Part shown: positions 1,663 through 64,000 of the stretch, in pieces
How positions within the stretch are numbered: position 1 is the first letter of the stretch
Layout of the letters: the number at the start of each line of letters is the position of its first letter
From: Platerodrilus igneus
Taxonomy: Eukaryota; Arthropoda; Insecta; Coleoptera; Lycidae
Assembly: GCA_036346225.1 (NCBI GenBank)
Contig: JARFIW010001215.1
Location: forward strand, 8,942,501 to 9,006,500
Length of the DNA: 64,000 nt
Direction: 5' to 3'
The notes under the pieces: model-generated
Told to the model about the DNA's origin: nothing
Databases searched by the model: none
The model's input: the letters and a program-made list of their open reading frames with translations, nothing else
Position numbers and translations under genes: made by a program

Positions 1663-2654
1663 ATGATGCAGTCCCACACTAACAAACGTCGATTCGCATG
1701 TAATGTCTGTGATTATACCGCATCACGAGAAAGTCATTTACAGGAACATTTGAGATTGCATACTAACGAGCGTCCATTCGCCTGCAATTTGTGTAATTAT
1801 ACGGCATCACGGAAAAGTAATTTAAAAATACATTTGCGGTCGCACACTAACGAGCGTCCATTTGGATGTAATTTTTGTGATTATACCACGTCACAAAAAA
1901 GTAATTTACAGGTACATTTGCGGTCGCATACTAACGAGCGTCCCTTCGCTTGCAATTTGTGTAATTATACCACTTCACAGAACAGTCATTTACATGAACA
2001 TTTGAGGTTTCACACTAACGAGCGTCCATTCACATGCAATTTGTGTAATTATACCGCATCACGAAAAGGTCATTTACAAGAACATTTGAGGTCGCATACT
2101 AACGACCGTCCATTCTCGTGCAATTTATGTAACTATACGGCAGCACGAAAAAGTAATTTACAAATACATTTGCGGTCGCACACCAACGAGCGTCCATTTG
2201 CATGCAACTTTTGTGATTACACCGCGTCGCAAAGAAGTAATTTACAGGTACATTTGTGGTCGCATACTACCGAGCGTCCATTCGCATGCAATTTGTGTAA
2301 TTATAGCACATTACAGAAAATCTTTTGCAAGAACATTTGAGGTTCCATACTAACGAGCATCCATTTGCATGCAATTTATGTAATTATACGGCATTACGAA
2401 AAAGTAATTTAAAAATGCATTTGCGGTCGCACACTAACGAGCGTCTACTTGCATGTAATTTTTGTAATTATACCACGTCACGAAAAAGTAATTTACAGGT
2501 ACATTTGCGGTCGCATACTAACGAGCGTCCATTCGCGTGCAATTTCTGTAATTATACCGCATCACAAAAAAGTCATATACAAAGACATTTGTGGTCGCAT
2601 ACTAACGAGCGTTCGTTCGCATGCAATTTGTGTGATTATAGCACATCACAATAA
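1663..2654 (+). pseudogene. Poly-C2H2 zinc-finger gene C (frameshifted)
   Basis: The start is ATG ATG CAG, the same start context as genes A and B. The first open frame (225 aa) holds seven complete C2H2 fingers of 28 residues (C-x2-C-x12-H-x3-H) joined by the linker TNERPF. Finger 8 is broken by a one-base loss near 2315, after which the next frame (2325-2654) carries fingers 9-11. Finger 12 is cut by a TAA at 2652, where sister fingers have a lysine codon. An aromatic residue sits two positions after the second Cys (CNYT/CDYT) instead of the usual Phe at position four, as in REST- or Hunchback-type fingers. Predicted helix contacts are monotonous (-1 R/Q, +2 S/G, +3 N/H). There is no ZAD, KRAB, BTB or other effector domain. 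The product would be a nuclear nucleic-acid-binding protein. A 225-aa truncated protein could still be made, so 'pseudogene' is inferred from comparison with its paralogues. Confidence 0.8.
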
Positions 2655-6539: not shown

Positions 6540-7068
6540 TATTGCGAGATACTATTAGGCAACCCGTCAAACACACAAGCGCCGCAAGCACTGTACATTC
6601 TCCATGGACCGGGAAGCTTCTTGTAAATACTGGAGGATGAGTCATCCTTTTTAATTCACGGTATACATAAGACCGATGATGAAGTACAGAGTTAGTCTGT
6701 ATCAGAATGTCGAATATAAATTATATCGTGTAAAGTTAAATAGTCGAGCTTTTGGAAGTCCAAGAGTATACACAAATGTTATATTATGTGTCTAATGTAC
6801 ATGCAGCTTCTCGAATACATACATAGACAAAAGTGAAATAAATTAATAGTTGTGTTAGTGTTGTTAATGGACCTATGATTAAGAAGTTAGTTTAAGAAGA
6901 TATTAGTGCTTGTAAATTCATTAGTGTTAGTGCTTCATTGTTAATTGGACTGAAAACATCTATAAATAAAGCATATACTGTTAATTGGACTTGTGAACAG
7001 TGAGTAATAAAGACTTTTGTTATTACTTGTTGTAAATTAGTGAAACGCGGTGGTAGTAGCCCGTTACA
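6540..7068 (+). mobile_element. Solo LTR inserted in unit C
   Basis: A 529-bp block begins TATTGCGAGATACTATTAGG and ends CCGTTACA, flanked by the 4-bp duplication ATAT (6536-6539 and 7069-7072). It contains a TATA-like stretch near 6661 followed by an AGTTAGTCTGT initiator-like block and AATAAAG near 7006. Its first ~25 bp closely match the LTR start of the gypsy element at 60219. The bodies differ, so it is a related but distinct family. Sequence on both sides is co-linear with unit A, which lacks the insertion. Confidence 0.75.
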
Positions 7069-9824: not shown

Positions 9825-10300
9825 TACATTCTCCATGGACCGGGAAGCTTCTAGCAAATACTGGAGGATGAGTCATCCTTTTTAATTCACGGTATAAATA
9901 AGACCGATGATGAAGTACAGAGTTAGTCTGTATCAGAATGTCGAATATAAATTATATCGTGTAAAGTTAAATAGTCGAGCTTTTGGAAGTCCAAGAGTAT
10001 ACACAAATGTTATATTATGTGTCTAATGTGCATGCAGCTTCTCGAATACATACATAGACAAAAGTGAAATAAATTAATAGTTGTGTTAGTGTTGTTAATG
10101 GACCTATAATTAAGAAGTTAGTTTAAGAAGATATTAGTGCTTGTAAATTCATTAGTGTGTAGTGCTTCATTGTTAATTGGACTGAAAACATCTATAAATA
10201 AAGCATATACTATTAATTAGACTTGTGAACAGTGAGTAATAAAGACTTTTGTTATTACATGTTTTAAATTGGTGAAACTCGTTAGCGGTAGCCCGCTACA
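9825..10300 (+). mobile_element. 5'-truncated copy of the solo LTR
   Basis: It is co-linear with 6592-7068. It carries TATAAATA near 9893, the same AATAAAG near 10238 and the terminal GCTACA. The LTR start is missing because of the deletion described for the preceding entry. Confidence 0.7.
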
Positions 10301-25085: not shown

Positions 25086-25964
25086 TCATACAAATGAACG
25101 TTTCTTAGTATGCGACAGCAAATGGTTTTTTAGAGATGCTTTTTTTGATGCGGAATAGTCACATAAATTGCACACAAATGAGCGTTTATTAGTGTGCGAC
25201 TGCAAATGTCTTTGTAAATGACTTTTTTGTGATGTAGTATAATCACACAAGTTGCATGCAAACGGACGTTCGTTAGTATGCGACCGAAAATGTATTTGTA
25301 AATGGTTTTTTTGTGATGTGCTAAAACCACACAAACTGCATACGAACGGACGCTCGTTATTATGCCATCGCAAATGTCTTTGTAAACTACTTTTTTGTGA
25401 TGTGCTATAATCACATAAATTGCATGCAAATGGACGATTATTAACATGCGACCGCAAATGTATTTGTAAATGACTTTTTTGTGTGGTGGTATAATTACAC
25501 AAATTGCACGACAACGGACGCTCGTTAGTATGCAACCACAAGTGTATTTGTAAAGTACTTTTTCGTGATGCGGTATAATCGCACAAATTGCATGAGAATG
25601 GGCGCTCGTTAGTATGAGACCGTAAGTGTACATGTAAAATACCTTTTTGTGATGCGGTATAATCACACAAATTGCATACGAACGGACGTTCGTCAGAATG
25701 CGACCACAAATGTTTTTGTAAATCACTTTTTCGTGACGAACTATAACTACACAACATGCATGGGAATAGACGCTCGTTGGTATGCGACCACATATGTACT
25801 TGTAAATTACCTTTTTGTGATGTGCTATAATCACACAAATTGCATGCGAATGGACGCTCGTTAGTATGCGACCGCAAATGTATTTGTAAAGTATTTTTTC
25901 GTGATACGGTATAATCACAAAAATTGCATGCGAACGGACGGTGGTTAATATGGGACTGCATCAT
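25086..25964 (-). CDS. Poly-C2H2 zinc-finger protein A (10 fingers)
   Basis: An uninterrupted 292-aa frame starts at ATG ATG CAG, as in the sister genes. It contains ten complete C2H2 fingers at 28-residue spacing with TNERPF-type linkers, ending ...TKKRSFV. Predicted DNA-contact residues vary little (-1 mostly R/Q, +2 S/G/N, +3 N/H/T/S, +6 I/V/K/R), so the preferred site should be repetitive. No effector, oligomerisation or nuclear-localisation domain is evident beyond the basic fingers. The protein is probably nuclear and binds DNA or RNA. About 210 bp of its 5' UTR are conserved, but its TATA promoter is missing and replaced by (TA)n at 26177. The promoter's counterpart lies 17.5 kb away at 43685, so the gene may be silent although its frame is open. 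An antisense 262-aa frame is a shadow. Confidence 0.75.
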   Translation of the reverse strand: MMQSHINHRPFACNFCDYTVSRKNTLQIHLRSHTNERPFACNLCDYSTSQKGNLQVHMWSHTNERLFPCMLCSYSSSRKSDLQKHLWSHSDERPFVCNLCDYTASQKGILHVHLRSHTNERPFSCNLCDYTASRKSTLQIHLWLHTNERPLSCNLCNYTTTQKSHLQIHLRSHVNNRPFACNLCDYSTSQKSSLQRHLRWHNNERPFVCSLCGFSTSQKNHLQIHFRSHTNERPFACNLCDYTTSQKSHLQRHLQSHTNKRSFVCNLCDYSASKKASLKNHLLSHTKKRSFV

Positions 25965-48643: not shown

Positions 48644-49894
48644 CAAGGGTCGTTCAATAATTCCTTGGGAAATCCAAGAGATGACGCTCGTAGTACCGAA
48701 AATATATTTTTGACAGTAAGCAGCACTTCTAACTAGTCAGCTGTTTCAGCCGCATCCATCACGTAGTTTCATTTTTTGTTGATTGAAGTAAAAACTTTCA
48801 TTTGATTATAACAATTGATAAAGGTGATTTTCAAGCAGTGATTAAACACTTGTATTTGAAAGAGTTAACGGCGAAAGAAATCAAAGATGAGTGGGATGAA
48901 GTCCATAGCGCATATGTCCCTGCGTTTGCAACTGTTTACAATTAGGTGATTGAGTTTAAACATGACCATACATCTACAAAAGATGAACATCGTTCCGGAC
49001 GCCTTGTGAAAGTGTCTACCCCCGAAATGATTGACAAAATTCACGATATGATTTTAAATGATCGACGAATAAAAGTGCGCGAAATAGTTGAGGCCACAGG
49101 CATATCGCAAGGTACAGTTGCTTCAATTTTGCACGAAAAATTGGCTTGGAAAAAAATCTCGGCAAGATGGGTGCCGCGTTTGCTCAACGCAACGTGTGGT
49201 AGATTCTGAGGCTGCTTTGGCGCTTTTCTGTTGCAATCTTGAGGATTTTCTGCGTCGATACATAACTGTTGACGAAACATGGATACATTACTACACTCCA
49301 GAGACAAAAGAACAGCCAAAACAGTGGATTTTTGAAGACGAACGGGCTCCGAAGAAGGCGAAGAAATCGGCCGGCAATGCTATAGTCAGGGTCTTTTGGG
49401 ATGCACGCGGTATCATCTACATAGATTACTTAGAAAAGGGAAACGATACCAGGAGATTATTATGCCTCGTTATTGGACCGGCTGAGCGAAGAAATCAAGG
49501 AAAAACGTCCTCATTTGAAACGGAAAAAGATCCTTTTTCATCAAGACAATGCACGGGTGCACACTGCGCAGTTGCAATTGCCAAAATTATAGAATTGAAA
49601 TTCCAATTATTACAATATCCACTATATTCGCCAGATTTACCCCCCGTGACTTTTTCTTATCAGCAAACTTAAAAAAATAGCTTGGAGGACAAAGGTTTAC
49701 GTCTAATGAGGAAGTCATCACCCAAACGAATGCCTATTTTGAGGAGCTTCGGAAATTCCATTTGGACGGCTTAAAAAATTTGGAAAAACGCTTAGAAAAA
49801 TGTATAGAGCTGAAGGGAGATTATGTTGAAAAATAAAAAACGAACCCAAAAAAATGTTTTTTCTACTTTTCCCTAAGGACTTGAACGACCCTCG
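48644..49894 (+). mobile_element. mariner element (SETMAR-like) with TA target duplication
   Basis: The termini CAAGGGTCGTTCAA (left) and the inverse of TTGAACGACCCTCG (right) form the TIR core. TA duplications lie at 48642-48643 and 49895-49896. At 1.25 kb it is full length for mariner. The corresponding site in unit A (near 19010) is empty and reads GTGTTATTTG across the join. Confidence 0.9.
48810..49836 (+). pseudogene. mariner transposase pseudogene
   Basis: The reading begins with an N-terminal HTH region (VIKHLYLKELTAKEIKDEW) and is interrupted by TAG at about 48943. It reopens with IDKIHDMILNDRRIKVREIV and GISQGTVASILHEKLAWKK, the second HTH, then WVPRLL. After a frameshift near 49195 come the catalytic block ITVDETWIHYYTPETK with the first Asp, HQDNARVHT (second Asp, in yet another frame) and YSPDL (third Asp of the DD34D triad). 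The wording is closest to the SETMAR/Hsmar-type lineage. Nonsense and frameshifts make it inactive. Confidence 0.85.
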
Positions 49895-55458: not shown

Positions 55459-55460
55459 TT
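54790..55460 (-). repeat. Higher-order two-finger repeat
   Basis: The block TTTTTATGATG recurs at 54794, 54959, 55124, 55291 and 55456, giving a 165-167-bp period equal to two fingers (168 bp minus a codon-size loss). Neighbouring units share private changes such as CATTAGAGTAAACGC, so the pair was amplified as a unit. Confidence 0.8.
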
Positions 55461-56367
55461 ATGATATGGTATAATCGCACAAATTGTATGCAAATAGACG
55501 CTCGTTTGTGTGTGACCGCAAATGTAATTGCAAACAACTTTTTCGTGACGCGGTATAATGACACAAATTGCATTTGAATGGACGTTCGTCAGTATGCGAC
55601 CACAAATGTTTTCGTAAATCACCTTTTCGTGACGAGGTATAATTACACAAATTGCAAGCAAATGGACGTTCGTTAATATGCAACCGTAGGTGTTCTATTA
55701 AATTACTTTTACGTGATGTCGTATAATTACACAAATTGCATGCAAATGGACGTTGGTTAGTGTGTGACCACAAATGTACTTGTAAATGACTTTTCCGTAA
55801 TGCGGTATATTTACACAAAGTGCATGCAAATGCACGCTCATTAGTATGCGACTTCAAATGTTCTTGTAAATGACCTTTTTGGAATGCGGCATAATTACAC
55901 AAAGTGCATGCAAATGGACGACGTGCGTAAGTATGCAGCCGCAAATGTTGTGGTAAATTACTTTTTTGTGATGCGGCATAACCACACGAACTGCATATGA
56001 ATGGACGCTCTTCAGTGTGCGATCGCAAATGTACTTGCAAATGACTTTTTCGTGATGCCGTATAATCACACAAATTGCATGCGAATGGACGCTCTTTGGT
56101 ATGTGACCACAAATGTACATGTAGATTACCTTTTTGTGATGTGGTATAATCACACAAGTTGCATGAAAATGGACGCTCGTTAGTATGTGACCGCAAGTGT
56201 ACTTGTAAATAACTTTTTCGTGATGCAGTATAATTACAGAAATTGCATGCGAATGCACGCTGATTAGTATGCGACTTTAAATGTTCTTGTAAATAACGTT
56301 TTTGTGATGCGCTATAATTACACAAATTGCATGCTATAGGACCTTCGTTAGTGTGGGACTGCATCAT
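55459..56367 (-). CDS. Poly-C2H2 zinc-finger protein B (10 fingers)
   Basis: A 302-aa frame starts at ATG ATG CAG. It has ten complete C2H2 fingers of 28 residues with TNERPF/TNQRAF-type linkers. The linker between fingers 5 and 6 has an extra residue (TYARRPF). Finger 11 has lost its first Cys (FAYN) and is cut by TAA. Helix contacts repeat the family pattern (-1 R/Q, +2 S/G, +3 N/H/Y/D), so sites should resemble those of proteins A and C. No effector domain is present. Unlike gene A, it keeps its whole conserved upstream region with TATA at 56612-56619. It is the best candidate in the window for an expressed gene, as a nuclear nucleic-acid-binding protein. Antisense frames over it are shadows. 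Confidence 0.8.
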   Translation of the reverse strand: MMQSHTNEGPIACNLCNYSASQKRYLQEHLKSHTNQRAFACNFCNYTASRKSYLQVHLRSHTNERPFSCNLCDYTTSQKGNLHVHLWSHTKERPFACNLCDYTASRKSHLQVHLRSHTEERPFICSSCGYAASQKSNLPQHLRLHTYARRPFACTLCNYAAFQKGHLQEHLKSHTNERAFACTLCKYTALRKSHLQVHLWSHTNQRPFACNLCNYTTSRKSNLIEHLRLHINERPFACNLCNYTSSRKGDLRKHLWSHTDERPFKCNLCHYTASRKSCLQLHLRSHTNERLFAYNLCDYTIS

Positions 56368-57028: not shown

Positions 57029-59548
57029 ATGAATACTTGCGAAGATTGTGGTTTTGAGTTTACACAAAAGAAGAATTTAAGAAAGATTCATAATTTTGAA
57101 TATAGGAAACCAGTTACTTTAACTAGTAAATTTTTGTGTGATACATGTGGCAAATCCTTGACCAGTAAAGCAACTTTACGTCGTCATTGCAGAACTGTTC
57201 ATAAAAGTATTCCAATAATTCTTAACTCGTCAAGAATCAAGTGCTTTTATGAAAATTGTACAACACATCTAAAGGGATATAAAAAACTTCGACAACATTT
57301 GGCAAATGAACATCAAATTGAAACTAAACTTGATCAACTACATTTTATTTCACAATTAGGTTTGAAGATTATTATGCAAAGTGTTAATTATATACTAATT
57401 TTATTCTGTTCAACAGAGTTCAAAAATTGGAAAACCAAGAACAGGAAAAATCTTTGGCAATGTATATACTTCACACTTCAGCTAAATTATTGTCTGATGT
57501 CACCAAAAAGGAGTACTATAATTGCCATCGATCGTACAACTACATTCCAAAAGGCAAGGGTTTTGGAAGCTTAAAAAGCACAGGCACTAATAAAATTGGA
57601 AGTGTTTGTCCCTCAAGAATGGAAGCAACGATAAAGAACGATGGGTCTGTTGCAGTAGACTTCTGGACAACTCATGTTAGACATACCAACGATATTGGTC
57701 GAGTTTTTTTAAGTAAAGGGAGTAAAGCAGAAATTGCAGGTATTTTCGAACATAAAGTTCTAGTTTGAAATTTTACAATTGATGTGTTTCAGGAAAATTA
57801 AAGGAAGGTGTTACATTTCGACATATATTGGATGATGTTCGTGATTCTGCTTTAAAACAAGAAAATCACAGAGAATTTTGTTGTTAGAAACAAAAGATAT
57901 GCACAATATTATTAGGGATTTCAATATTGAGTATGGCGTGAAACGTCACCTAAATGATGCAATTAGCGTACGGCTCTGGGTAGAGGAGATGATGAACTTA
58001 GGAAGCGACTGCCCAGTGTTATATTATAAAAGCCAAGGTGTAGAAGGAAACCCAAATGACTCAGAAATAATTTTAGATGTTCAAGATTTTGCATTAGTCA
58101 TAATGACTTCTTTTCAACGTGAACAGTTGCTTAAATTTGGGAACGAAAAAGTGTGCGTTGATGGTATACACGGTACAAATAGTTACGATTTTCAGCTCTA
58201 CACACTAATGACAGTGGATGAATTTGGTTCAGGGTGCCCAGTGGCATTTTGTTTTTCAAATCGTGCTGACGAAATGATTTTCAAGTTGGTTTTTGGAAAA
58301 ATTAAATCAAGAGTGGGTATTATATCAACTACTGTTTTTATGTCTGATGATGCTCCAGCATTTTATAATGCATGGTCTTATGTTATGGCCAAGGTACCTC
58401 ACCAGTTGCTATGTACCTGGCATGTGGATCGTAATTGGCGCAAGAATTTGTCAAAAATCAATGGAGGGATTGAAAAGAAAGTAGTAGTATATAAATCCCT
58501 TCGTGTTTTATTACAGTGTGTATCTATTGATGAATTTAATGACATTTTAAATCAGGTAGTAGAAGATCTTTATGCCGATGTTGATACACAATCATTTGCT
58601 GAATATTTTCATAATAATTATGCAAATCGTCCAACATCTTGGGCATATTGCTAACGATTGGGTTTAGGAATAAACACTAACATGTATCTTGAATCGATGC
58701 ACAAAGTTTTGAAGTATGTGTATGTGGAAGGTTGGAAAGTAAAACGTTTGGACAAAAGCATTAATGCAGTAATGAAAATTGCTCGAGATAGCTTGTTTAA
58801 ACGTATAATTAAACTTGCAAAGAATACTTCCAATGACAAAATTAATAGAATTAAACAAAGTCATAAAGCAAGTCTAACAATTACATCAGATTTATTAGAC
58901 GTCTTGAAAATGATAAGGAATTTTTAGTTACGTCGTCCACTTGTGCTTTTCAACAGTATCAAGTTACCAGAGTAGATGAGGCCTGTGAAAGTTCATGCCT
59001 AAGTTGTACAAAGTGCAGCATATGTGTTCATACATTTCAATGCACCTGTATTGACAACATGATAAAGCTTAACATTTGCAAACACATACATGCTTGTGCG
59101 ATACAGTTTTACAAATCGAATCTTGACACCTTTGCATATTAGTAACGTTAATGAACTTTTCAGCAGTAATATTTTACATAAAGCAAAATCTTCAAAAAAT
59201 GATATTATTAAAAAAAAAGCCGAGCTAATAATAGGCTTATGTGAGAATGCTTCGTTAACTGACGACGAACATCTGGGTATAATAAAGCAATTTGATAAAA
59301 TCATTGACACACTAAATAAAGCAAAATCTATTGATATAAAAACTATAGAGATTAATATTAATAAAAAAGTTGAACATTAGGTGCGGCTTTTTTCAACAAA
59401 GAAGAAATCAACAAGGAATAATGATCTTAAAAAGCCTACCCTAACAGAAGAAATTTTTATTAGGGATGGTTTGGTTAATAACTCAAACCTTAATGTTAAT
59501 GTTCATACAAGATCTGATCATACATCACCTGATTTTATGTTAAGATAA
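57029..59548 (+). pseudogene. Mutator-like (MULE) transposase: C2H2 fingers + DDE + SWIM, decayed
   Basis: The gene starts at ATG 57029. Three C2H2-like fingers come first (CEDCGFEF, CDTCGKSL...HCRTVH, and one with C-x4-C). A 57-bp GT-AG intron (about 57360-57416) leads into 57427-57768. A second short intron ends with TTTCAG at 57792. Then follow a conserved helical region and the MULE core: VCVDGIHGTN (first Asp), TVFMSDDAPAF (second Asp), LLCTWHVDRNW and, past an in-frame TAA at 58652, YLESMHKVLK (Glu). A SWIM zinc motif CTC...CKH (C-x-C-x9-C-x-H) lies at 59041-59086 in a shifted frame. A C-terminal basic tail (FSTKKKSTRNN) follows a TAG at 59378. A frameshift near 57876 adds to the damage. 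TIRs were not found. Confidence 0.8.
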
Positions 59549-59700: not shown

Positions 59701-60219
59701 CCAGCGAATTTTGATGGGAAACCTCCAAGTACGCGACTAATCTAATTTAATCCTCAGTTCTCACTTTATTTTATCAGTGTTACAAGCGCTGGTAAGTTAT
59801 TGTAATTTCGTCAAATCTGTCGGATTGAGTGTTCTTATATTAACAGTGCAGTATTTTAGTTTTACTTTTAGTCGGAGTACCAAAATAATCTTAATTTTCT
59901 TTGTTCTTTTACATATTTTAGTCGACTGACAGTGCAGACAAAATTCTCGACAAAATAAAATTAGTTTCTTTCTTAATTAATTTAGGTATTTATTGAGAAT
60001 ATATATGGGTACATAACGTGTTTACTTTTTAAAAAATAAAAATACAGTTATTGAAACCTCAAGCCTTTATTACTATTATTAAACACATTTCACTCAAGTA
60101 ATTAATAATTTACAAATCAAATTAAAGAAATCCCAGCAAAGTACCTTTAAACTGCATATTGACACAAGTACGAAAGATACCTAGAATAGCAACGGGTTGC
60201 CTAATAGTAGCTCGCAACA
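59700..60219 (-). mobile_element. 3' LTR of the gypsy element (inner end defined, outer end uncertain)
   Basis: On the minus strand the LTR begins TGTTGCGAGCTACTATTAGG at 60219, directly after the AAAGGGGGG polypurine tract and a TAG stop. The start matches the solo LTR at 6540. AATAAAGG near 60065 (minus) is a candidate polyadenylation signal. The outer end is not determinable without the 5' LTR, which lies outside the window; the lower bound given is approximate. Confidence 0.6.
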
Positions 60220-60840
60220 CTACCCCCCTTTAAAACCGTTACGTCTCGTAACAGTAAACACATTTTGACGCCAATTCGATGAATGATGACGGTATCGGCA
60301 GCTATCTCCTCTGGTGCATCCACGGCGTCGTTGGAAATAACAGTCAACACTTTTTTCTTGGTCTTGGTAGGCAACCGTTTGATAACAACAAACAAGGACC
60401 TGGACGTTGGTTTCCTGGAAAACTACTTCTAGCATATTTCGGACTATCCTCCAATCTAAGCGATCCAGTCCACAGCCTAGCTTGGGCACCACTAGTTTTG
60501 TTATTCCATTTTCCATCATCTGCGCCTTAAGATTTAGCAAAGCCTCCCATAGATGTCCATAACTAGGTCTCTGCCATGAGGAATTTTTGGTGACCAGATA
60601 GTAAATATAACGATTTTTATCTTGAAGAACCAAAGCTTTTCCTACAGTTGGCTGCTGTTGTACTAATTCATCCACACATCCAAACTTTTTCATGAAAACA
60701 ACAGCTATTCCTCTTGACATTTCCAAATCTTGAGCTACGCAATGTTCAAGGGAATACTCTTCTGGTGCTCTAAACAGATCTTGCTGTGTTTCAACAACAA
60801 CGCCAAATCTCGCCTTAGCAGAACCACCATATGCCGCCAT
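60220..60840 (-). CDS. Retrotransposon-borne TARG1/OARD1-like macrodomain with C-terminal CCCH zinc finger
   Basis: A 206-aa frame from ATG 60840 to TAG 60220. Residues ~10-155 are a macrodomain of the TARG1/OARD1 class (ADP-ribosyl-ester hydrolase): GDLF-like DLFRAP at 21-26, AHC-like LEHCVAQD, MSRGIAVVF for the glycine-rich loop, YYLVTKNSS and GCGLDRLDW. By alignment to that family from memory, Lys85 (VTK) and Asp126 (GLD) match the catalytic Lys/Asp pair. Residues 167-185 form a CCCH finger (C-x7-C-x5-C-x3-H), a typical RNA-binding type. The predicted role is removal of ADP-ribose from protein or nucleic acid, with the finger guiding it to RNA. The ORF is in the same frame as pol, 14 codons after a TGA, and its last codons AAA GGG GGG are the polypurine tract next to the LTR, so it belongs to the retroelement. 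Function in the element (countering host PARP defence, or particle chemistry) is inference. Confidence 0.8.
   Translation of the reverse strand: MAAYGGSAKARFGVVVETQQDLFRAPEEYSLEHCVAQDLEMSRGIAVVFMKKFGCVDELVQQQPTVGKALVLQDKNRYIYYLVTKNSSWQRPSYGHLWEALLNLKAQMMENGITKLVVPKLGCGLDRLDWRIVRNMLEVVFQETNVQVLVCCYQTVAYQDQEKSVDCYFQRRRGCTRGDSCRYRHHSSNWRQNVFTVTRRNGFKGG
60223..60231 (-). promoter_or_regulatory. Polypurine tract (plus-strand primer) of the gypsy element
   Basis: AAAGGGGGG on the minus strand, three bases before the LTR start TGTTGCG. It overlaps the final Lys-Gly-Gly codons of the macrodomain ORF, and the intervening TAG is that ORF's stop codon. Confidence 0.8.
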
Positions 60841-60882
60841 AAAACTCTCAAACTCTACATTTGGCTCATGACTAATAACTTG

Positions 60883-63800
60883 TCAAACACCATTCTCATT
60901 ATTTGGGCCTTCAAGGTTGCTGCCAGCGTAGGATGTTAAACGGTCAAAGTGTACCACTTTCGGTTTACCACAGGAAAATCTTCTGATCCGGTACACTACA
61001 TCATTAATCCTTTTCATCACTTCGTACGGGCTTTCCCATTGTCTTTGTAATTTTGGCGACAATCCACGCTTTCTTTGTGGATTATACAACCACACTAAAT
61101 CTCTAGGTTAATAACCACCTTCTTGTGCTCTCGTGTCATATTGTGATTTCATTCGATCGCTTGCTGCCTGGATATTCTTTCGGACGTTTTCGTGAATGCT
61201 ATTTAATCTTTCATGAAGCTTACTAACGTAATCTTCACCTGCGATCTCTTCTCCAGGTTTAAATCCAAACTGAAGATCACATGGTAGCCGTAATTCACGT
61301 CCTAGCATTACGCAAGCGGGCGAGTATTCTGTGCTGTCATGTACCGAAGATTGGTACGCCAGTAGGAACAAATGTAAATATTGGTCCCAGTCTCGTTGAT
61401 GTTCAGAGACAACTTTGGCCAGGTAGTTCCCTAACGTCCTGTTCATTCTTTCAACCATTCCATCCGATTGGGGATGAAGTGGCGTGGTTCTAGTCTTCCT
61501 GATTCCAAGATGCTTGCAGACGTTTTGAAACAACGCTGATTCGAAGTTCCGACCTTGATCGGAGTGTAATTCCAACGGAACTCCAAAACGACAAAACAAC
61601 GCCCTGACTAGTACATCTGCAACCGACTCGACTTCTTGATTAGGTATAGCATATGCCTCCGGCCATTTGGTAAAATAATCCATTGCAACCAAGATGTATT
61701 TATTTCCTTTCTCTGATTCAGGAAACGGACCAGCTATATCAATGGCTACCCTCTCATAAGGATTCCCCACGTTATACTGTCTCATTGGGGCTTTCCGTTT
61801 TGTGACCGGGCCATTTGCAGAGGCACACAATTCACATTTCCGGCACCACTCCTTCACATCATCTTTGCAGTTCACCCAATAGAATCTTACTCTCACTCTT
61901 TCGAGAGTTCTTTTCACGCCAAAGTGCCCTCCGGAAATACCATCGTGCAAGTGCTGCAACACTTCCGGCACTCTGCTTCCCGGCACTATCACTTCAAGTC
62001 TCTCAGTGCCATCTTCACATTCCAGGCGTCGTTTCAAGATTCTATTTCCAATCATCAAGGAGTCCCACTGTGCCCAGTATGCCTTCAGGTTCCTACTTAA
62101 AATACTAATTTCTTCCCAAGCTGGTCGTTGTCCTCTATTTTTCCACTCAATAATGCGTTCCAATTCGACGTCCTTCTCCTGGTCTTCTCGTAGTCTTTCG
62201 GGTTGCCAAATATCATCGGTCACCGTCATTCTATGGATGACACTTATCTTCTCTTCCATCTTGGAGCAATGATTGCAGTCCACCGGACAAGGTCTCTTTG
62301 ATAGAGCGTCTGCATTCCGATGGCTGGTTCCTACACGATGTTCTGTGTCAAAGTCATTTTCCTGCAGCCGCTCTATCCACCTTGCAACTTGCCCTTCAGG
62401 ATTTCGAAACTGCAGTAACCATTTTAGTGCAGCATAGTTTGTTCTCAACAGGAATTTACGGCCGTATAAGTACTTATAAAAGTGCTCTACGGATTTGACG
62501 ACGGCCAACAGCTCCCTTCTTGTCACACAATAGTTCCTTTCTGGACGCGACAAGACCTTACTGAAATACCCAATAACTTTTTCTTGTCCGTCCTGCACTT
62601 GAGAAAGAACGCTTCCTATAGCTGTGTTACTGGTATCGGTATCCAACACAAATTTCCCCTCCATCCGCGGATAACTCAAAATTGGTGCTGTAACTAGTAG
62701 CTGTTTCAGTTGTTCAAATGCACTGTGGCAGTCGTCATTCCAATCATATTCTTGTCCATCTTCGGTTAATTTTGTTAACGGTTTGGCAATGTTTGCAAAC
62801 CCAAGTATGAAACTTCGGTAATATGTACACAATCCTAGAAAACTGCGTAGTTGGTGTATATCTGCTGGTGTAGGCCACTCTTGCACCGTTTTTATTTTTT
62901 CAGGGTCAGCTCTTATTCCGGTCTCCGAAACGACATGTCCTAGGTATTTAACCTCTTTTCCAAATAGGTGACACTTCTTGGGGCTCAATGTAAGGTTTGC
63001 CCCGAGTAATCTTTGGAATATCTCCTCTAGGTTCTTAAGGTGTTCTTCAAAAGACCGGCCTAACACTATCACGTCGTCTAGGTACACCAAACACGTTTTC
63101 CAGGACAGTCCACGCAGTATCGATTCCATCAATCGTTCAAAAGTAGCAGGGGCATTGCATAATCCAAATGGCATGTCCTTGAACTGCCATAATCCGGTTC
63201 CAATTGTAAACGCAGTCTTTTCTTTATCGTTTGGCTCCAAGCCAACTTGCCAGTATCCGCTTTTCAAGTCCAAGGTCGAAAACCATTTAGATCCGGATAG
63301 AGTATCCAAGATGTCATCAATTCTGGGCAAAGGATCGCTGTCTTTCTTTGTCACATTGTTTAACCTCCGGTAGTCTACACAAAACCTTGTCGACTCATCC
63401 TTTTTCTTGACAAGCACTAACGGGGACGCCCATGGACTATTCGAGGGTTCAATCACTCCTTGTTCTTCCATGTCGGTGATGATTTGCGCGGCTTCCTTAC
63501 GTTTTGCCAAAGGAAGCCGCCTGGGGTGTTGTCTTATCGGTTGCGTATCTCCAGTATTGATTTTATGTCGCACAACATTCGTCCTTCCTTTCTCACTATC
63601 ATCCAGTGCAAACACACTTCGATATCGTCCGACCAGTTCTTTTACCTTGCCCATTTGATGGCCGTTTAATCCTTGACACGAAGGTATCAACATATCCAGA
63701 AATTTCTGTGAGCAACCGTTGGCTGGTTTATCTTTCGTGTCGTCCACACAACGTTTAATATGGCATACTGGAATGCAACTTCCCACAATCATGTCTTTCT

Positions 63801-64000
63801 TCAGGGTCACCGTATGCGGATTAATGTTCAGCACCCTTACTGGTATCATATTTCGAAACTTTACCAGCGTTCTTCCAATCAGTGATCCCTCCTGACCCAT
63901 TCCCGATTCAGTTGCTTCCATCATGCATACTTGTTCTTCTCGGAGCGTACTATCCGGGCGTCCCATTACTATCATTTCCGCCTTCTCAGGTATTTTTATA
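60883..64000 (-). pseudogene. Ty3/gypsy Pol polyprotein (RT, RNase H, integrase), partial at window edge
   Basis: The frame is open from the window edge to a TAA at 61110-61108. The first internal Met is at 63975, but the reading upstream remains open. Numbered from that Met: RT at ~130-345 with TLDLKSGYW (Asp236) and YLDD (298-301); RNase H at ~440-560 with Asp447, Glu488 and Asp556, but Asn513 where the family has its third catalytic Asp; integrase with an HHCC zinc site (His677, His684, Cys714, Cys717) and a DD35E triad (Asp746, Asp806, Glu842). Past the TAA the same frame continues to a TGA at 60885-60883 with WLYNPQRKRGLSPKLQ and VVHFDRLTSY, the GPY/F-type integrase C-terminus. The premature TAA and the RNase H change suggest this copy is dead. 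Protease and Gag must lie beyond 64000. Confidence 0.9.

What the first reader, a model, noticed from the sequence alone, without database searches (positions are those of the whole stretch)
60220..60840. Gypsy retrotransposon encodes a TARG1-like macrodomain fused to a CCCH zinc finger
A 206-aa ORF between integrase and 3' LTR carries a macrodomain with the TARG1-class Lys (85) and Asp (126) preserved, plus a canonical C-x7-C-x5-C-x3-H finger. Viral macrodomains reverse PARP-mediated ADP-ribosylation, and CCCH fingers occur in antiviral PARPs, so this may be a host gene captured by a retroelement to erase ADP-ribose marks on its RNA, DNA or capsid. I know of no established LTR-retrotransposon system with this fusion in the env position.
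Basis: partly seen in the sequence, partly recalled or inferred. Interest (0 to 1): 0.88.

Follow-up and report, generated by a model that had tools for sequence, protein, structure and literature searches.

The report
Retrotransposon with an ADP-ribose eraser domain
A group of jumping genes, seen so far mainly in beetles, carries a conserved relative of a cellular enzyme that removes ADP-ribose tags, which suggests that host ADP-ribose tagging is something these elements have to undo.

The parts
60220..60840 (-). 206-aa open frame, macrodomain + CCCH finger; C-terminal part of Pol in relatives; stop at 60222-60220
60382..60804 (-). TARG1-class macrodomain (residues 13-153)
60586..60588 (-). 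Lys85 = TARG1 Lys84
   Evidence: alignment; K in 33 of 36 non-redundant C-terminal-type rows
60463..60465 (-). Asp126 = TARG1 Asp125
   Evidence: alignment; D in 33 of 36
60286..60342 (-). CCCH finger C167-x7-C175-x5-C181-x3-H185
   Evidence: sequence; Pfam CCCH models below cut-off here, zf-CCCH above cut-off in relative P0041 (22.6 against 20.5); pattern in 25 of 36 rows
60841..61107 (-). C-terminal integrase module and linker, same frame, interrupted by a stop at 60885-60883
61108..63999 (-). Pol frame (RT, RNase H, integrase), runs off the window; stop at 61110-61108
   Evidence: Pfam
62932..63411 (-). reverse transcriptase domain
   Evidence: RVT_1 6.2e-36
62359..62742 (-). RNase H domain
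   Evidence: RT_RNaseH_2 and RT_RNaseH
61471..61986 (-). integrase zinc-binding and core domains
   Evidence: Integrase_H2C2 3.9e-19, rve 8.9e-17
60223..60231 (-). purine run directly before the LTR, read as the polypurine tract
   Evidence: sequence
60194..60219 (-). remnant of the 3' LTR (first 26 bp, 96% to the LTR of copy L036); no LTR match further on
   Evidence: the 5' LTR match lies outside the window (L035 6838-7485)

Best explanation
This is a decayed copy of a high-copy Ty3/Gypsy element whose Pol polyprotein ends in a TARG1-class macrodomain plus a CCCH finger. Shown: the architecture, its conservation in one clade of elements, the conserved dyad, purifying selection on the macrodomain. 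Inferred: the domain is an active ADP-ribosyl hydrolase, brought onto the element's RNA or particle by fusion to Pol and by the CCCH finger, which removes mono-ADP-ribose that host transferases put on Gag/Pol proteins, on the RNA/cDNA or on bound host factors, and so keeps the element replicating.
For: TARG1 fold and dyad. Of 120 listed integrase relatives 27 carry it: 27 of the first 32, 0 of the last 88 (P0055, P0063, P0066 only in part). Quick Pol tree: one group, SH-aLRT 99, 20 rows with and 3 without macro; macro tree: C-terminal type one group 99/81, with one unlabelled row P0032 inside. Both dyad residues kept in 32 of 36 non-redundant rows and in 74 of 74 Aromia gene models, which are near copies of each other. 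MK-type test on 56 integrase-chosen copies: shared by >=4 copies N:S 7:23, singletons 61:26, OR 0.13, p 1.1e-5; threshold >=3 11:25, p 9.7e-5; >=2 22:30, p 0.0022; wrong frames p 0.21 and 1.0. A subgroup without the finger keeps the macro (P0046, P0050, P0054, P0059, P0061, P0064), so the macro seems the core. Four further Gypsy-type proteins (P0243, P0244, P0246, P0247) have TARG1-like domains with YLVTK and GCGLD at two other places. TARG1 frees Asp/Glu-linked ADP-ribose and reverses thymidine-linked ADP-ribose of DNA (PMC9411070, passages). ADP-ribosylation restrains another retroelement, L1, through SIRT6 (PMC4695847, passages).
Against: No activity, expression or substrate data. 4 of 36 rows lost one or both dyad residues (P0051, P0057, P0062, P0071). 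Three members of the Pol group lack the macro (P0052, P0053, P0058), so it is not indispensable. 44 of 56 integrase-chosen copies show indels in the macro, 27 of them frame-shifting, and 1 of the 12 indel-free ones has a stop; I read most of the indels as assembly artefacts but cannot prove it. Macro is less conserved than Pol (51% against 76% mean identity, 171 pairs of 19 elements), which also fits relaxed constraint. Selection on the finger region alone is not significant (5:7 against 32:13, p 0.09). I did not search the literature specifically for PARP restriction of insect retroelements; the listings showed none.
Confidence: 0.55

Rival explanations
1. Reader, not eraser: the macrodomain at the integrase C-terminus tethers the integration complex to ADP-ribosylated chromatin or damage sites, as the chromodomain at the same place does in chromoviruses (recalled).
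For: The macro begins 34-50 residues after the integrase C-terminal motif in all 24 relatives where the motif was found, of 27 with macro; macrodomains bind ADP-ribose; some members lost dyad residues but kept the domain (P0051, P0057, P0062, P0071).
Against: Dyad conserved in 32 of 36; in P0243/P0247 the domain precedes the protease and in P0244 and P0246 it lies between RNase H and integrase, so the integrase C-terminus is not required; a CCCH finger suggests RNA rather than chromatin.
Confidence: 0.22
2. Same hydrolase, other target: it repairs ADP-ribosylated nucleic acid (as DarG does) or recycles O-acyl-ADP-ribose, with no host defence involved.
Against: Recurrence in distant elements and in viruses fits an antagonist better than housekeeping (inference); no substrate data either way.
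Confidence: 0.15
3. Neutral passenger: a fragment fused once to Pol and merely inherited.
For: Three members of the Pol group lack it; macro less conserved than Pol.
Against: Shared variants N:S 7:23 against a neutral expectation near 2.9:1. Simulated neutral drift leaves at most 1.3% of frames open at 0.3 substitutions per site (mean identity 53%) and at most 0.2% at 0.7-1.4 (12-27% identity), whereas many distant relatives are open; the true neutral distance between the elements is not known.
Confidence: 0.04
4. Artefact: chimeric assembly, or a host gene next to a Gypsy fragment.
For: The window copy is decayed and separated from Pol by two stops.
Against: 60 of 60 integrase-chosen copies have it downstream, one 1441-codon frame holds Pol and macro in copy L036, and database polyproteins from several sources hold both.
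Confidence: 0.01

Closest known systems
TARG1 / OARD1 / C6orf130 (ALC1-like class macrodomain)
   Different: part of a retroelement Pol polyprotein, followed by a CCCH finger; activity untested
Epsilon-like fish endogenous retroviruses with macro-domain proteins (Basta 2009, as cited in PMC4977317)
   Same: a retroelement that acquired a macro-domain protein
   Different: vertebrate retroviruses, described as additional open reading frames; neither TARG1 class nor CCCH is named in the one passage seen; original paper not read
Ectocarpus Gypsy families with YbiA-family NADAR domain in Pol (PMC12477816)
   Same: Gypsy lineage with a conserved ADP-ribose-related domain inside Pol
   Different: NADAR, not macro; [quoted passage not shown] brown algae (one passage seen)
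412-like Ty3/Gypsy elements without macro
   Same: protease-RT-RNaseH-integrase; integrase of rows outside the macro clade up to 68% identical; one is named after transposon 412 (P0074); the clade name is my inference from that name
   Different: no macro in the 88 lower-ranked relatives of 120
Viral macrodomains (alphavirus nsP3, rubella, insect viruses)
   Same: macro fold; TARG1-like motifs in P0245; best viral structural match Kadipiro virus VP8, 44% identity but rmsd 6.4 over 160 columns
Chromovirus integrase chromodomain (recalled)
   Same: accessory domain at the integrase C-terminus
   Different: no chromodomain in the three polyproteins scanned

Membership tests
TARG1 macrodomain | macro fold closest to TARG1 | tested here: met
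   [not shown]
TARG1 macrodomain | catalytic Lys84/Asp125 | tested here: met
   Lys85 and Asp126 aligned; both kept in 32 of 36 rows; roles from PMC9411070 (passages)
TARG1 macrodomain | ADP-ribosyl hydrolase activity | not testable with these tools
   needs purified protein
CCCH zinc finger | C-x7/8-C-x5-C-x3-H with family score | tested here: inconclusive
   pattern present; Pfam scores below cut-off in the window copy, above it in P0041
CCCH zinc finger | zinc and RNA binding | not testable with these tools
   needs protein
Ty3/Gypsy LTR retrotransposon | order protease-RT-RNaseH-integrase | tested here: met
   window RT-RNaseH-integrase; protease before them in P0041, P0048, P0220
Ty3/Gypsy LTR retrotransposon | paired LTRs and polypurine tract | tested here: met
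   repeat pairs flank the macro in 6 of 8 stretches, which I picked from the list; LTR ends and purine runs in the 4 copies read
Ty3/Gypsy LTR retrotransposon | tRNA primer site and gag gene | tested here: inconclusive
   a similar sequence follows the 5' LTR in 4 copies, not matched to a tRNA; a 425-codon frame in L036 is called gag by position only; Retrotrans_gag in Aromia P0169 22.9 bits, cut-off 24.1
Chromovirus | chromodomain at integrase C-terminus | tested here: not met
   no Chromo family at E<=0.001 in P0220, P0041, P0048
Errantivirus-like (env-bearing) | env gene between Pol and 3' LTR | tested here: not met
   the Pol-macro frame fills the space and overlaps the 3' LTR in L036; no env family among Pfam hits of the two window frames and three relatives

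The most novel reading that the evidence does not exclude
ADP-ribosylation is a general layer of defence against reverse-transcribing elements in arthropods, and TARG1-class erasers have been captured at least three times by different Gypsy lineages (at Pol's C-terminus, before the protease, and between RNase H and integrase), and by insect viruses too, as dedicated antagonists. The beetle-linked lineage adds an RNA-binding finger that aims the eraser at the element's own RNA, much as some beetle nuclear TARG1 relatives carry a poly(A)-binding-protein motif that would aim theirs at mRNA.
Probability: 0.4. Interest if true: 0.88.

Novelty: new variant of a known kind. Interest (0 to 1): 0.78.

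Why it matters
If the domain is active, it points to an unrecognised conflict between retrotransposons and host ADP-ribosylation in insects (to my knowledge not described; not searched for by itself). It gives a ready test: a natural, selected eraser whose substrates would reveal what the host marks. It also shows that a set of 'C3H1-type' and 'Macro domain-containing' gene models in beetle annotations are retroelement pieces.

Tried and rejected
Rejected or left open: (1) Separate env-like gene: rejected, because the frame is continuous with Pol in relatives. (2) Widespread inactivation of the macro: 44 of 56 integrase-chosen copies showed indels against the window copy, 27 frame-shifting, mostly one-base deletions at a few shared places. 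These lie in runs of three to five equal bases, are nearly unlinked to each other (mean r2 0.11 at under 150 bp, 8 pairs, against 0.52 for substitutions, 82 pairs) and differ between near-identical copies. I read them as base-calling or assembly errors, less likely recurrent slippage, and left codons with gaps out of the counts. (3) Donor: constrained trees with beetle or beetle+fly TARG1 are not rejected and not favoured; undecided. (4) One capture for all element types: macro-tree AU tests do not reject it (p 0.50, 0.27, 0.15, and 0.057 for all together). I favour independent captures from the different places and from RT identities to the window of 40-43% against 71-79% for most C-terminal-type rows (59 and 64% in two Callosobruchus models, 91% in P0065). 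It is not proven: in the Pol tree P0243, P0244 and P0246 are long branches whose placing the tool warns about. (5) TARG1 of the window's own host: the search gave element copies. (6) DNA relatives in IMG/VR and the GTDB set: one and three loci, none a retroelement by record title or match size (flanks not examined).

Rows dropped and limits: Pol tree used 58 of 89 rows (half of the macro-less rows left out); its 20 macro rows include the window, P0160 and P0220. Macro tree: 68 rows after thinning 149 at 85% identity and dropping short ones; its bootstrap had not settled. The 60 copies are 60 of the 150 places listed (40 near the top, 20 from lower ranks). Codon counts leave out 4 of 60 copies with partial matches and the last 24 bases; Lys85 could be read in 42 of 56 integrase-chosen copies, Lys in each. 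Among variants shared by two or more copies one makes a stop, among those shared by three or more none. P0032, inside the C-terminal macro group, is an unlabelled 145-aa protein whose context I did not see. Whether the frame usually ends at the purine tract or runs into the LTR is open: it does run on in L036, and other copies differ by one base in the tract.

Full report

Place in the element. Upstream in the same frame lie RT, RNase H and integrase. Database polyprotein P0049 matches the window in one stretch from 63999 to 60286. Stops at 61110-61108 and 60885-60883 cut the frame in this copy; 85 of 85 aligned other copies have sense codons there. In copy L036 a 585-bp LTR pair (99.8% identical) encloses a 425-codon frame, taken for gag by position, and a 1441-codon frame that contains Pol, macro and finger and ends 56 nt inside the 3' LTR. 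Of eight stretches that I picked from the list, partly for long open frames, six show repeats that flank the macro, at 99.8, 99.0, 98.6, 97.8, 95.2 and 94.6% identity over 283-602 bp; two show none. The window copy keeps 26 recognisable bp of its 3' LTR; a 5' LTR match lies beyond the window edge.

Distribution. A database search by integrase residues alone found 1880 proteins and listed 120. The macro-CCCH profile hits 28 of the 120, one of which (P0052) matches the tail only: 27 of the first 32 by rank and 0 of the last 88 carry the macrodomain, three of the 27 (P0055, P0063, P0066) in part. The five of the first 32 without it are P0052, P0053, P0058, P0069 and P0070. A quick Pol tree puts 20 macro-bearing and 3 macro-less rows (P0052, P0053, P0058) in one group (SH-aLRT 99, no bootstrap). 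The macro tree groups 36 C-terminal-type rows plus P0032 at 99/81. A search with the domain of P0049 over polyprotein-sized candidates gave 98 proteins, 74 of them Aromia moschata gene models. Named hosts of the C-terminal type over searches are Aromia, Molorchus, Callosobruchus, Acanthoscelides, Diabrotica, Gonioctena, Harmonia and Aquatica, all beetles (lineages looked up for Aromia, Aquatica and Harmonia; the others from knowledge). Its genome has 13,907 first-look candidates for the domain; the 150 scored all match at E below 1e-127.

Selection. To avoid choosing copies by the macro itself I used the integrase search (54,480 candidates, 150 scored), fetched 60 of those copies and found macro sequence downstream in 60 of 60, full length in 56. 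Among the 56, variants seen in at least four copies are 7 nonsynonymous to 23 synonymous, singletons 61 to 26 (OR 0.13, p 1.1e-5); at thresholds of three and two copies 11:25 (p 9.7e-5) and 22:30 (p 0.0022). In the two wrong frames the contrast vanishes (28:4 against 64:21, p 0.21; 25:7 against 69:19, p 1.0). With 29 macro-chosen copies added: macro 8:25 against 102:38 (p 4e-7), integrase control 4:37 against 128:71, linker 14:15 against 68:26 (p 0.02), finger and tail 5:7 against 32:13 (p 0.09, not significant). Sequencing errors would swell the singletons, but the shared class alone lies far from the neutral expectation of about 2.9:1. Between 19 elements the macro averages 51% and Pol 76% identity (171 pairs): constrained but less so than Pol, as expected of a domain in a conflict or of a partly relaxed one. 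Against this stand frequent one-base deletions in these copies, which I judge to be mostly assembly artefacts.

Residues. Of 36 non-redundant C-terminal-type rows, 32 keep both dyad residues; P0051, P0057, P0062 and P0071 do not. Asp21 (equivalent of a TARG1 adenosine-side residue, recalled) is Asp in 32 of the 32 rows that reach it. The finger pattern is in 25 of 36; six of the 11 without it (P0046, P0050, P0054, P0059, P0061, P0064) form one Pol subgroup that keeps the macro, and some others are short entries.

Other carriers. P0243 and P0247 have the TARG1-like domain before the protease; P0244 and P0246 between RNase H and integrase; all four keep YLVTK and GCGLD. Their RTs are 40-43% identical to the window's. 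Position and Pol distance suggest separate gains; the macro tree alone cannot exclude a shared origin. A TARG1-like domain also occurs in an RNA-virus polyprotein (P0245). Among viral predicted structures the best match is Kadipiro virus VP8 (44% identity, but rmsd 6.4 over 160 columns), and macro-fold matches of 20-32% identity follow in thrips-associated and Hubei virga-, negev- and flavi-like viruses; these need not be TARG1-class.

Mechanism. Fold, dyad and selection argue for an enzyme. TARG1 is proposed to free Asp/Glu-linked ADP-ribose through the Lys/Asp dyad and also reverses thymidine-linked ADP-ribose (PMC9411070, passages). Host ADP-ribosylation acts on retroelements elsewhere: SIRT6 represses L1 by modifying KAP1 (PMC4695847, passages), and the CCCH-bearing PARP13/ZAP restricts retrotransposons although its own PARP-like domain is inactive (PMC4982230, passages). 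I therefore prefer an eraser carried with Pol; the finger may hold it on RNA. The main rival is a reader that steers integration, like the chromodomain at the same place.

Prior art. Nine searches of open-licence papers listed none on a TARG1-type macrodomain in a Ty3/Gypsy element. Related: macro-domain proteins in fish epsilon-like retroviruses (PMC4977317, one passage, citing Basta 2009, not read) and NADAR in Ectocarpus Gypsy (PMC12477816, one passage). The library lacks most subscription papers and Repbase could not be searched, so an entry for this element may well exist there.

Noticed in passing
P0235, P0237-P0242 (beetle chromosomal proteins): Seven beetle proteins of 816-1296 aa without retroelement domains in the precomputed lists carry a TARG1 domain in their C-terminal half; P0238 has a Pfam PAM2 (poly(A)-binding-protein) motif and P0235, P0237 and P0242 a PAM2-like pattern. 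This looks like an mRNA-docked TARG1.
   Followed up: partly
P0245, residues 750-906: An RNA-virus polyprotein (methyltransferase, helicase, RdRP by precomputed Pfam) carries a TARG1-like macrodomain with the dyad motifs.
   Followed up: no
Kadipiro virus VP8 (BFVD A0A8E0KJF2): Best viral structural match to the model, 44% identity, loose superposition.
   Followed up: no
Lactobacillus phages LP65 and LpeD, Bacillus phage G, Fusobacterium phages: Phages encode TARG1-like macrodomains 31-40% identical to the window's domain.
   Followed up: no
window 6542-7068 and 9850-10300, plus strand: Two further LTR fragments, about 81% identical to the LTR of copy L036.
   Followed up: partly
genome G000, copies L043-L102: Recurrent one-base deletions in short homopolymers among near-identical copies, nearly unlinked to each other: the assembly seems poorly polished in young repeats, so stop and frameshift counts there can mislead.
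   Followed up: yes
window 57878-58654 (+), 49088-49672 (+), 55459-56367 (-), 25086-25964 (-), 1663-2340 (+): MULE transposase fragment, Transposase_1 fragment, and three C2H2 zinc-finger arrays.
   Followed up: no
Aromia moschata gene models P0161-P0219, P0221-P0234, P0236: Many are listed with SAP and gag or integrase C-terminal families and no RT (precomputed lists; P0169 scanned), probably because annotation cut the RT region out.
   Followed up: no
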